Assembly: GCF_013408535.1 (NCBI RefSeq)
Contig: NZ_JACBZA010000001.1
Coordinates: forward strand, 558,001-622,000
DNA from: Actinopolymorpha cephalotaxi
GTDB lineage: Bacteria; Actinomycetota; Actinomycetes; Propionibacteriales; Actinopolymorphaceae
DNA: 64,000 nt
Reading direction: 5' to 3'
The translations under genes and the position numbers were made by a program. Shown here piece after piece: positions 52,390 to 55,342 of the stretch (position 1 is its first letter; each line of letters starts with the position of its first letter). The notes under the pieces are model-generated. The model ran no database searches. It was given only the letters and a program-made list of their open reading frames with translations, and was not told where the DNA came from.

Positions 52390-53124
52390 TCAGAAATCGG
52401 CCCGGGCGCCGGGCGGCAGTGCGGGGATGGGCCACCTCGGGTCGGGACGCCAGTCCTCCCAGCCGTCGCGGAACGGCGAACCCCACCGGGCTACCACCTC
52501 CTCGACGGCACGGGCGTCCTTCTCGAATTCCGCGGCGTCGGCGGCGTCGTAGCGGCCCCAGCGGACGGCGGCGGCGAGTTCGTCCTCGTCCTTCCAGCGC
52601 ACGGTGCGGTCGGGATGCACCACGACGTCGAGGACGTGATCCTGGGTCACCACGTGGAGGTCGTCACGGACGTGGACGTCCTCGAGGTTGACGTACCAGT
52701 TGCGGAATCTCCCGTCGGGAAGCCAGAACAGCCAGACCGACCACGGGACACCGGTCGGCGCGACCTTGAGGATGCCCGTTCCGCGCCAGCGGTCCCGCTT
52801 GAGCGCGCGGTTGTCCGGCCTTCGGTACCAGTCGTCGATCTGGGCGGCGCGCAGGTCGCGGCCGTCGGTGAGCACCGGCCGCAGCACCGGGGTCCCCGGC
52901 GCCAGCCAGGCCACCAGGGCGTCGGCGTCGTCGCGTACGACAGTCATCGGCCGGACGGTCTCCGGACTCCCCGGCAGCCAGGTGCGCCGACGGTAGTGCC
53001 ACCAGATGTGCGTGCCCGGCTGCCAGTACGGCGGTGGGCCGGACGGGCGCATCCCGGCGGTCCCGGGACGCTGGGCGGGCAGACCGCCCGGATCGGGAGT
53101 CGTACCGGAGGAAACGTTCACCAT
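52390..53124 (-). CDS. DUF402-domain protein
   Basis: A 244-residue protein with the DUF402 beta-barrel in its second half: WSVWLFWLPDGRFRNWYVNLEDVHVRDDLHVVTQDHVLDVVVHPD, followed by WKDEDELAAAVRWGRYDAADAAEF. Characterised DUF402 relatives are nucleoside di/triphosphatases or part of RNA-processing proteins, using Asp/Glu in these segments to bind metal. TAGGAT on the minus strand lies 4 nt before ATG 53124 and 7 nt before the in-frame GTG 53121, so the true start may be that GTG. Its upstream region contains the palindromic repeat cluster. Confidence 0.83.
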   Translation of the reverse strand: MVNVSSGTTPDPGGLPAQRPGTAGMRPSGPPPYWQPGTHIWWHYRRRTWLPGSPETVRPMTVVRDDADALVAWLAPGTPVLRPVLTDGRDLRAAQIDDWYRRPDNRALKRDRWRGTGILKVAPTGVPWSVWLFWLPDGRFRNWYVNLEDVHVRDDLHVVTQDHVLDVVVHPDRTVRWKDEDELAAAVRWGRYDAADAAEFEKDARAVEEVVARWGSPFRDGWEDWRPDPRWPIPALPPGARADF

Positions 53125-53128
53125 CGCG

Positions 53129-53134
53129 ATCCTA
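53129..53134 (-). promoter_or_regulatory. -10 box of a leaderless promoter for the DUF402 gene
   Basis: TAGGAT on the minus strand, 4 nt before ATG 53124 and 7 nt before GTG 53121; the 7-nt spacing favours the GTG as first codon. Confidence 0.45.
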
Positions 53135-53210
53135 GTCGCGAACGATCGCCGGTACCCGGGTCGTGGTCATCCTCGGCCAACCGGCTCAGCAGGCACCGAC
53201 GCTGCGGGTC

Positions 53211-53503
53211 CGGCGGGATTCTTCCGCGGAAGAATCCCGCCGATGGAAGACATAGCCCCGGGACATGATCTGAGGATCAGGGGCCGACCGGGGCTCTTCG
53301 TGCAAGACGCTACCCAGAAATCTCGCCGCCGACTCCTCCGCAGAATGGTCCGGCCGCGTCGGGAGTGCTGCGCGAGAAGAGATTCTGGTGCCGGGAAAAG
53401 GCGTGGCCCCGGGGCATGATCCGAAGAGCAGAGGCCTACCGGGGCTTTTCGCGAATGACGGTACCACTTGTCGTCTCAGCTGGATTCTTCCGCGGAAGAA
53501 TCC
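53211..53503. repeat. cluster of palindromes (P1-P3) and two hairpin repeats (R1, R2)
   Basis: P1 (53211-53242) is a 32-bp perfect spacerless palindrome centred on TTCCGCGGAA. P3 (53482-53503) repeats its inner 22 bp exactly. P2 (53330-53351) is a degenerate copy (15 of 22 match). R1 (53254-53314) and R2 (53405-53465) match at 49 of 61 ungapped positions; each has a GCCCCGG/CCGGGGC stem, and R1 has a nested TGATC/GATCA stem. R1 to R2 and P2 to P3 are both about 151 bp apart, so an R-P unit was duplicated and has diverged, with an extra P in front. No coding frame is convincing. P3 overlaps the last codons of the MazG-like gene. Confidence 0.8.
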
Positions 53504-53928
53504 GCGTGGCCCGCGTCTCGCAGGAGGGGGGCAATGTCCGGTGCGGCGAATCCCGGCCCCTTCACCACCTTGCCGTCCGCCCGCAGGATCGGGCGGCCGC
53601 CCGGGCCGAGCTTGCTCATGTTGGAGCGGTGCACCTCGGCGAGTACGGCATCCAGCGGGATGCCGTACTCGCACGCCGTTCCGTAGATCACGTACGTCAT
53701 GTCGGCGAGCGCGTCGGCCACCGCCACCAGGTCACCGGCCGCGGCGGCCTCGACGTACTCCTCGAACTCCTCACGCAGCAAGGCGATCCGCAGCCGCCAG
53801 GAGTCCGGGCGCGGCACCGGGGCGTCGGAGGCTCCGAGCCCGAACGCCTCGTGGAACTCCCGCGCCATCACGGCCACCCCGGCGACCGCGGCCACCCGGG
53901 CCGTCGGCTCGCGCTCCCCGTCCAGCAT
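53476..53928 (-). CDS. MazG-like nucleotide pyrophosphohydrolase (all-alpha NTP-PPase)
   Basis: A 150-residue protein. The helical core has MAREFHEAFGL, then the metal motif LLREEFEEYVEAA (ExxxE) and DALADMTYVIYGTACEYGI (ExxD-like second site), then HRSNMSKLGPGGRPILRADGKVVKGPGF, a pattern typical of the short phosphoribosyl-ATP-pyrophosphohydrolase-like group. It would hydrolyse (deoxy)nucleoside triphosphates or similar metabolites. The C-terminus (HADSSAEESS) is encoded by palindrome P3, so the natural end has been replaced or extended by repeat DNA. It lies 13 bp after fumC on the same strand. Confidence 0.85.
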   Translation of the reverse strand: MLDGEREPTARVAAVAGVAVMAREFHEAFGLGASDAPVPRPDSWRLRIALLREEFEEYVEAAAAGDLVAVADALADMTYVIYGTACEYGIPLDAVLAEVHRSNMSKLGPGGRPILRADGKVVKGPGFAAPDIAPLLRDAGHADSSAEESS

Positions 53929-53941
53929 CGCCGGTCCCAGA

Positions 53942-55342
53942 TCAGGGATGCGTCATCGACAGGACGTCGAGTGCCTTGTCGAGTTGCTCCTCGGTGAGAT
54001 CGCCGCGCTCGACGTACCCCTGCTCGATCACGACCTGCCGGATGGTCTTGCGTTCGGCGAGTGAGGTCTTCGCGACCTTCGCGGCGTTCTCGTAGCCGAT
54101 GTAGCGGTTCAGCGGGGTGACCACCGACGGCGAGGACTCGGCGTACTCGCGGCAGCGTTCGGCGTTGGCGGTGATGCCGGCCACCAGCCGGTCGGCGAAC
54201 AGCACGCTCACGTTGGTGAGCAGCCGGATCGACTCCAGCAGGTTGCGGGCGATCACCGGCAGCATGACGTTGAGCTCGAAGTCGCCCTGCGAACCCGCGA
54301 ACGCCACCGCGGCGTCGTTGCCGACGACCTGCGCCACCACCTGCCGGGCGGCCTCGGGGATGACCGGGTTGACCTTGCCGGGCATGATGCTCGACCCCGG
54401 CTGCAGGTCGGGCAGCGCCAGCTCACCGAGGCCGGCGCGCGGGCCGGAGCCCATCCAGCGAATGTCGTTGGCCGCCTTGTAGAGGCCGACCGCGATCGTA
54501 CGCAGCTGACCGGACAGCTCGACCAGCGCGTCGCGGGCGCCCTGCGCCTCGAAGTGGTTGCGGGCCTCCCGCAGCGGCAGCCCGGTCGTCTCGACGAGTT
54601 CGGCGATCACCTTCTCGGCGAACCCGGGCGGGGTGTTGATGCCGGTGCCGACCGCGGTGCCGCCGAGCGGCAGCTCGCCGACGCGGGGGAGCGTGGACTC
54701 CACCCGCTCGATGCCGTACCGGATCTGTGCGGCGTAACCGCCGAACTCCTGGCCGAGTGTCACCGGCGTGGCGTCCATCAGGTGCGTACGCCCCGACTTC
54801 ACCACCGTGGCGAACTCCGTCGCCTTCGTCTCCAGCGAGTCCGACAGGTGCGACAGCGCCGGGATCAGGTCGTTGAGGACGGCATACGTCGCGGCGATGT
54901 GGATGGAGGAGGGGAACACGTCGTTGCTGGACTGCGAGGCGTTGACATGGTCGTTGGGGTGGACGGACCGGCCGAGCGCCTCGGTGGCCAGCGTGGCCAG
55001 CACCTCGTTGGTGTTCATGTTGCTGGAGGTGCCCGAGCCGGTCTGGAACACGTCGATCGGGAAGTGCACGTCGTGGGTGCCGGCGGCCACCGCGGCCGCG
55101 GCCTCCTGGATCGCCTTGGCGAGGTCGGCGTCGATGACGCCGAGCTCCGCGTTGACCTTCGCCGCCGCGCCCTTGATCAGGGCGAGTGCCCGGATGTGCT
55201 GGGCCTCCAGCATCGAGCCGGAGATCGGGAAGTTCTCCACCGCGCGCTGGGTCTGGGCCCGCCACTTCGCCTCGGCGGGAACCCTGACCTCGCCCATGGT
55301 GTCGCGTTCGATCCGGTAGTCCTGCTCTCGCTCCTGCGCCAT
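53942..55342 (-). CDS. fumC: class II fumarate hydratase
   Basis: TCA-cycle enzyme hydrating fumarate to L-malate without an iron-sulfur cluster. The 466-residue protein shows the class II signatures [66 protein letters not shown] and the superfamily loop [11 protein letters not shown] with the catalytic Ser. ATG 55342 has TAGAGT 6 nt upstream and no RBS. It is divergent from the first citrate synthase (51 bp), linking two TCA enzymes through one short control region, and precedes the MazG-like gene. Position matches Rv1098c synteny. Confidence 0.96.

What the first reader, a model, noticed from the sequence alone, without database searches (positions are those of the whole stretch)
53211..53503. 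Unclassified repeat cluster: 32-bp perfect palindrome, its copies, and duplicated nested hairpins
P1 is a 32-bp palindrome with no spacer; P3 repeats its inner 22 bp exactly, P2 is a decayed copy. R1 and R2 (61 bp, 49 matches) each form a GCCCCGG/CCGGGGC stem, and R1 has an inner TGATC/GATCA stem. R1-R2 and P2-P3 spacings are both about 151 bp, so an R-P module was duplicated and kept its pairing potential. This looks like a REP/BIME-type or structured-RNA element rather than random sequence, and it has replaced the natural 3' end of the MazG-like gene. I do not recognise the family.
Basis: seen in the sequence. Interest (0 to 1): 0.75.

Follow-up and report, generated by a model that had tools for sequence, protein, structure and literature searches.

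The report
Palindrome-bounded repeat mosaic in Actinopolymorpha
A short perfect palindrome, scattered about sixty times in a soil bacterium and often unchanged in related species while the DNA around it drifted, has at this spot gained a small hairpin-bearing insert with a copy of the palindrome on each side.

Summary
The repeats are real and belong to a larger system. P1 (32 bp) is the longest perfect palindrome in the window. Its core TTCTTCCGCGGAAGAA occurs 62 times in this genome and 2-22 times in five other Actinopolymorpha genomes, but in none of 51 searched relatives of other genera. Copies lie mostly near gene 3' ends. In six single-P ortholog pairs the core is identical while bases 5-14 outside it match at only 51 of 120. 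Outer stems differ between copies yet pair far more often than chance. In two related species the site by the MazG-like gene has one P; the window has P3-R2-P2-R1-P1, so about 266 bp, including a second P, were gained. Elsewhere P often accompanies another hairpin pair (HH), which came after P. The layout resembles Neisseria dRS3/NIME mosaics. It is not a typical REP/RAYT system: no Y1 transposase in the P-rich genomes and no tag beside P. R is rare (four copies found) and in the window does not fold better than shuffles. Best reading: a conserved gene-end palindrome that also serves as an insertion/rearrangement site for small hairpin cassettes. The enzyme and the host function are inferred, not shown.

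The parts
53211..53242 (.). P1: perfect 32-bp palindrome; core TTCTTCCGCGGAAGAA at 53219-53234; right-hand copy of the site
   Evidence: right flank matches the right flank of the single P in G004 and G001
53247..53314 (.). R1: repeat with GCCCCGG/CCGGGGC and TGATC/GATCA inverted repeats
   Evidence: 79% identical to R2; 92% to L072:2402-2449 over 49 nt
53330..53351 (.). P2: probable decayed P (7 of 22 mismatches)
53398..53465 (.). R2: second R copy, offset 151 from R1
53482..53503 (.). P3: perfect 22-bp palindrome, core 53485-53500, in frame near the end of the MazG-like gene; left-hand copy of the site
   Evidence: in MazG orientation its left flank matches that of the single P in G004 and G001
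53235..53484 (.). Stretch between the two P cores (R-P2-R) that, together with one P (266 bp in all), is absent from the orthologous sites of G004 and G001
53476..53928 (-). MazG-like gene (PF01503, PRA-PH), 150 aa, ending ...ADSSAEESS just behind P3
52390..53124 (-). DUF402 gene (PF04167) whose start lies 94 bases from the P1 core

Best explanation
P is a genus-specific palindromic site kept letter for letter at the ends of particular genes, and it is also the place where short hairpin-bearing cassettes enter. A cassette X (R-P-R here, the double hairpin HH elsewhere) joins at P so that P ends up on both sides: P becomes P-X-P. Orthologs with one P are the unfilled state; the window is a filled site with two R-P units. 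Shown: the layout, the dispersed copies, the conserved core, one-P orthologs, and that at shared loci P is older than H. Inferred: that joining happens by recombination or transposition acting at P rather than by several independent changes; that the enzyme is not a Y1 transposase; and that the core is kept by a host role (3'-end hairpin or protein site).
For: Dispersal: 62 exact cores, reversed control 0. Window: one P in G004 and G001; left flank matches P3 (0.72, 0.78) and right flank P1 (0.70, 0.75), against 0.55-0.60 for the crossed comparisons and an unrelated median of 0.62, 95% point 0.70; P-core to DUF402 ATG 94 bases here, 95 in G004. Same pattern at L048 (three species; one of the three is ambiguous at flank lengths 30 and 45) and L049, weaker at L047. 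P before H: for 15 own P+H loci with a G004 interval, G004 has P+H 3, P only 7, H only 0, neither 5. H gathers at P: 24 of 33 own H loci have a P (at most 1 mismatch) within 200 bp. Rearrangement at P: at L195 the gene next to P, with its P, is inverted relative to both G004 and G001, with P within about 30 bp of a breakpoint; at L062 a gene bracketed by HH and P is inverted relative to G004.
Against: No enzyme identified. Over 16 multi-P versus single-P comparisons the split-flank pattern appears in 9, 8 and 10 (flanks 30, 45, 60), against 184 of 575 (32%) with unrelated flanks, so the overall excess is modest. Short intergenic regions bring gene ends into the flanks and favour the pattern. 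P-to-H distances vary (about 25-150 bp), so P-HH-P is no rigid unit; 9 of 33 own H loci have no P found. At L054 and L061 HH came without a second P. L195 has only one P, so its inversion is not simple P-by-P exchange, and no baseline inversion rate was measured. Deletion between two P copies in the other species is not strictly excluded, as the species tree is unknown.
Confidence: 0.42

Rival explanations
1. P is simply a conserved two-way gene-end hairpin (terminator-like or mRNA 3'-end element). R and HH landed beside it because such regions tolerate insertions, and extra P copies arose by local duplication.
For: 33 of 65 own copies lie between convergent genes; 29 of 55 within 60 bp of a stop, random mean 18.3, maximum 28 of 2000. 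Outer stems vary but pair: 22 of 111 copies have at least 6 extra perfect pairs, permutation mean 2.1, maximum 8. Paired changes between orthologs at L065/L106 and L069/L157.
Against: No T-run behind the hairpins and no terminator-like site in 52900-54000. Stability alone does not explain an invariant A/T-containing apex. In the other species 28 of 45 lie within 60 bp of a stop, not beyond random (25.1). P also lies inside genes and upstream of DUF402 genes. Filled sites repeatedly end in P on both sides.
Confidence: 0.28
2. P is a hairpin-prone sequence that causes replication stalling and template switching; duplications and perfected palindromes arise from copying errors without any dedicated enzyme.
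For: P occurs in close tandem with varied spacers: starts 29 and 34 apart at L071 and L049, six copies in about 670 bp in G001 L146. Palindromic extensions differ between copies. Single-P inversion with a breakpoint near P at L195.
Against: Template switching keeps symmetry, not one particular 16-letter core; the core is exact in 13 of 26 G004 intervals. It does not bring dispersed families such as HH to P.
Confidence: 0.15
3. P is the binding site of a chromosome-organising or regulatory protein (parS/Noc/matS-like).
For: Symmetric, nearly invariant 18-20-bp site; some origin bias: 26, 10, 15 and 10 of 61 sites by quarter of distance from the parS cluster.
Against: By locus the bias is weak (16, 8, 11, 5 of 40). 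Copy number 62 to 2 between congeners. Extra paired stem outside the core is not expected of a plain protein site.
Confidence: 0.1
4. A classic REP/BIME family moved by a RAYT (Y1 transposase).
For: Size, location downstream of genes, clustering and occasional in-gene copies match published REP traits (PMC3733652, abstract and passages seen). Y1_Tnp matches exist in G003 (7) and G005 (9).
Against: No Y1_Tnp match in G000, G001, G002 or G004, which hold 62, 22, 7 and 21 P, while the two genomes with Y1 hold 2 and 4. No P (up to 4 mismatches) or H in the 10 fetched Y1 loci (of 16 matches). No conserved tag: beyond the third base outside the core no column exceeds 36 of 60 for one base.
Confidence: 0.05

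Closest known systems
Neisserial intergenic mosaic elements (NIMEs) with dRS3 repeats
   Same: A roughly 20-bp inverted-repeat sequence in many copies and longer repeat units (30-160 bp) build intergenic arrays; dRS3 is a target of filamentous phage integration and recombination between dRS3 copies was suggested (PMC3898611, passages).
   Different: Other sequence (dRS3 is ATTCCC N8 GGGAAT), other phylum, P is a full palindrome, about ten times fewer copies, no phage or integrase linked to P found.
REP/BIME/REPIN elements with RAYT
   Same: Short palindromes, intergenic, downstream of genes, clustered, sometimes inside genes (PMC3733652, abstract and passages).
   Different: No GTAG or CGTC tag, no Y1 transposase in the P-rich genomes, perfect rather than imperfect palindrome with invariant 16-bp core.
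Rickettsia palindromic elements (RPE)
   Same: Palindromic repeat that also occurs inside genes in a tolerated frame; RPEs are mentioned as REP-like in PMC3733652 (passage); the in-frame trait is recalled.
   Different: RPEs are longer (recalled) and in another phylum; P is mostly intergenic.
parS / Noc-type chromosomal sites
   Same: Perfect 14-16-bp palindromes in several to tens of copies (recalled).
   Different: Other sequence, copy number varies widely between congeners, paired outer stems, gene-end location.

Membership tests
REP/BIME with RAYT | Y1 (RAYT-type) transposase in the genome | tested here: not met
   PF01797: no match in G000, G001, G002, G004
REP/BIME with RAYT | GTAG or CGTC tag at one end of the palindrome | tested here: not met
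   No conserved column beyond the third base outside the core in 60 copies; tag rule from PMC3733652
REP/BIME with RAYT | Dispersed, mostly intergenic, downstream of genes | tested here: met
   62 copies; 33 convergent, 22 same-direction, 9 divergent, 1 in a gene of 65
NIME/dRS3 | Short inverted repeat bracketing longer repeat units in intergenic arrays | tested here: met
   P-R-P-R-P in the window; P-HH-P at L036, L037, L040, L047, L048, L056 and others
NIME/dRS3 | Sequence ATTCCC N8 GGGAAT | tested here: not met
   P reads GGATTCTTCCGCGGAAGAATCC; pattern from PMC3898611
NIME/dRS3 | Site used by an integrase | tested here: inconclusive
   IS110-type matches 6, 3, 3, 49, 5, 1 in G000-G005 do not track P; 12 fetched IS110 loci hold no P or H; other recombinases not searched
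Intrinsic terminator | Hairpin followed by a T-run | tested here: not met
   No site in 52900-54000; other P loci were not scanned with that tool
Known RNA family | Rfam match at gathering score | tested here: not met
   0 matches in the window
parS/Noc-type site | Bound by a ParB-like protein; distribution tied to origin or terminus | tested here: inconclusive
   Weak origin bias only; binding not testable here

The most novel reading that the evidence does not exclude
P is the attachment site of an unknown site-specific system that moves gene-free hairpin cassettes of 100-250 bp, filling, emptying and sometimes inverting DNA at P sites at gene ends, with the palindrome kept intact because the host also uses it there.
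Probability: 0.2. Interest if true: 0.8.

Novelty: new variant of a known kind. Interest (0 to 1): 0.5.

Why it matters
It is a palindrome family for which my searches found no published record (open-access texts only), in a genus with several genomes to compare, so filled and unfilled states of the same site can be read side by side. That makes it testable how bacterial mosaic repeats are built, whether an invariant palindrome persists by host selection or by its own copying, and how REP-like expansion happens without a detectable Y1 transposase.

Tried and rejected
Structured RNA for R: no Rfam match, no fold better than shuffles in the window; members found are R1, R2, L072:2402-2449 and G004 L210. 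The many other weak matches (E up to 10) were taken as chance and not read. No covariance model of R was built.

Origin of P from DUF222-HNH genes: two such genes carry P in and near them (L033, L053), but G000 has 44 DUF222 matches and G007 has 27 with no P; taken as incidental.

H as a covarying RNA: RNAalifold gave 11 pairs and a covariation term of 0.14; H is conserved mainly in sequence. A loose H pattern over-called H, so one search uses a profile built from P-linked copies.

Virus or plasmid origin: no 20-mer in viral contigs, no plasmid match. Outside the genus the 22-mer appeared only in two Geodermatophilaceae MAG contigs with similar flanks, apparently one shared locus.

Correction on rechecking: one search listed L195 as lacking P in G004 and G001. 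Both have an exact P beside the same gene, but gene and P are inverted there. The G004 count is therefore 13 exact, 4 changed, 9 none of 26.

Full report
CHECK OF THE OBSERVATION. P1 (53211-53242) is a perfect 32-bp palindrome and P3 (53482-53503) a perfect 22-bp one; they are the two longest in the window, the next being 18 bp. R1 and R2 share 54 of 68 bases, against a maximum of 43 in 199,565 random 68-mer pairs. P2 (53330-53351) differs from the 22-mer at 7 places; besides P1 and P3 only two places in the window come as near, so P2 is probably a decayed copy. P1 folds better than shuffles (z -3.92); R1 and R2 do not.

WHERE IT IS. The window is 558001-622000 of a single 6.86-Mb contig.

THE P FAMILY. 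The core TTCTTCCGCGGAAGAA has 62 exact copies here and 22, 7, 2, 21 and 4 in the five other genomes of the genus, with 0 in the 51 relatives of other genera searched and 0 for the reversed control. I located and read 61 of the 62. A scan of the one-genome-per-species collection for the 22-mer found six stretches of A. rutila and two Geodermatophilaceae MAG contigs that look like one shared locus; records near the window's genome may be left out there. Of 65 own copies with at most one mismatch, 33 lie between convergent genes, 22 between same-direction genes, 9 between divergent ones and 1 in a gene (home-made gene calls, and some 'divergent' cases are missed genes, as at L033 and L053). In this genome 29 of 55 non-divergent copies lie within 60 bp of a stop codon (random mean 18.3, maximum 28 of 2000); in the other species 28 of 45, not beyond random (mean 25.1).

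THE CORE IS KEPT. Of 17 fetched G004 P loci 13 match own P loci by flanking proteins. Of 26 own P loci with a syntenic G004 interval, one search gives 12 exact cores, 4 with one or two changes and 10 without; one of the ten (L195) has an exact P beside the same gene in inverted order, so 13, 4 and 9. The remaining own loci were not mapped, and L071/L113 fell out by the filter although both hold P. G001 and G002 loci were fetched because they hold P, so their figures are not unbiased. In six single-P ortholog pairs with identical cores, bases 5-14 outside the core match at 51 of 120. The outer stem varies but pairs: 22 of 111 copies have six or more extra perfect pairs, permutation mean 2.1, maximum 8. 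L065/L106 and L069/L157 show paired changes, L049/L133 palindromic ends with different letters, and the G004 site L154 reads CTCTTCCGCGGAAGAG. Either the hairpin matters, or a copying process perfects palindromes.

WHAT HAPPENED IN THE WINDOW. In G004 (L105) and G001 (L142) the same neighbourhood has one P, in frame in the MazG-like gene (ADSSAEE). Its left flank matches that of P3 and its right flank that of P1, and the P core lies 94 bases from the DUF402 ATG here and 95 in G004 (my pattern did not find the ATG in G001). So this genome holds about 266 bp more, one P plus R-P2-R. Behind the P core the MazG-like frame has two more codons before its stop here, 28 in G001 and 17 in G004.

THE SAME LAYOUT ELSEWHERE. 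Many P sites also carry a second family, H: about 50-bp hairpins of consensus GAAGCGTGAAGAC...GTCTTCACGCTTC, mostly two copies 73-77 bp apart. G000 has 60 H positions in 33 loci; 23 loci have an exact P and 24 a P with at most one mismatch within 200 bp, 9 have none found (two of the nine, at 1457872 and 2121015, were not read). The H model was built from P-linked copies and only 150 candidates were scored, so these counts carry some bias. In G004 intervals for 15 own P+H loci: P+H 3, P only 7, H only 0, neither 5: at shared loci P is the older. Split flanks around a gained insert are clear at the window (two species) and L049 and good at L048 (three species, one ambiguous at two flank lengths), weaker at L047. 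Over 16 comparisons the split pattern appears in 9, 8 and 10 (flank lengths 30, 45, 60), and in 184 of 575 trials with unrelated flanks. The overall excess is modest; the window, L048 and L049 carry the argument.

REARRANGEMENT AT P. At L195 a 0.5-kb stretch with one gene and its P is inverted relative to both G004 (L110) and G001 (L137), with P within about 30 bp of a breakpoint; no second P is present at the other end. At L062 a phosphotransferase-family gene bracketed by HH and P on both sides is inverted relative to G004, which lacks P and HH there. No baseline for such inversions away from P was measured.

WHO MOVES IT. No Y1_Tnp match in G000, G001, G002 or G004. IS110-type matches number 6, 3, 3, 49, 5 and 1 in G000-G005 and do not track P. 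The 12 fetched IS110 loci and 10 fetched Y1 loci, a part of all matches, contain neither P (up to 4 mismatches) nor H. Other recombinases were not searched.

COMPARISON. The layout is closest to Neisseria dRS3/NIME mosaics, where a 20-bp inverted repeat and 30-160-bp RS elements form intergenic arrays and dRS3 is a phage integration target (PMC3898611, passages). Location and size also fit REPs (PMC3733652, abstract and passages), but transposase and tag are missing. I file it as a new variant of the short palindromic repeat/mosaic kind, not as a member of REP/RAYT or of dRS3.

LIMITS. Gene calls are home-made; the species tree is unknown; gain rather than loss rests on parsimony over two to four genomes per site; function and enzyme are inferred.

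Noticed in passing
L035-L071, e.g. L037:2266-2396; G002 L196-L200: H family: about 50-bp hairpins, often two copies 74 bp apart in this genome; single, nearly perfect palindromic copies near gene ends in G002. Matches (both strands counted): G000 117, G001 12, G002 20, G003 0, G004 29, G005 27, G006 and G007 0.
   Followed up: partly
L036:2625-2679, L057:2058-2107, L064:2681-2736, G004 L107: A further hairpin (GGGAAGACnTnTGGG...CCCACAnGTCTTCCC type), apparently a subfamily of H, inserted in G004 L107 where the own ortholog L055 lacks it.
   Followed up: partly
window MazG-like gene; L033, L053, L102, L116, L143, L149: In the in-gene copies read, P is translated in one frame, giving SSAEE; two further P copies in the uncertain N-terminal part of the L053 reading frame read ILPRKN instead.
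   Followed up: partly
L195:1670-2193 against G004 L110 and G001 L137: A gene together with its P is inverted between species, P within about 30 bp of a breakpoint.
   Followed up: partly
L062:1355-2587 against G004 L168: A phosphotransferase-family gene (PF01636), bracketed by HH and P on both sides, is inverted relative to G004, which has no P or HH there.
   Followed up: partly
window 52390-53124; L059:2426-3019; G002 L117:1914-2585: Two different DUF402 genes each have P upstream of their start, one of them with three P copies in G002.
   Followed up: no
L033:901-2985, L053:1771-4419: Two similar DUF222-HNH genes with P inside and upstream; DUF222 has 44 matches in this genome.
   Followed up: partly
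G001 L146:2678-3347: Six exact P cores within about 670 bp, between genes whose orthologs at L070 have three exact and one changed P.
   Followed up: no
L064:2335-2470 and G004 L161: A longer tandem repeat (gagtgagcgaagcggtcggcgaggaacgagcc...) next to P, with more copies in G004, which lacks P there.
   Followed up: no
L192, L200, L206: Another shared inverted repeat (cagtagggccg...cggccctactg type) between genes.
   Followed up: no
L173:7099-7128, L179:514-535: The P 22-mer in two Geodermatophilaceae MAG contigs with similar surrounding sequence, probably one shared locus.
   Followed up: partly
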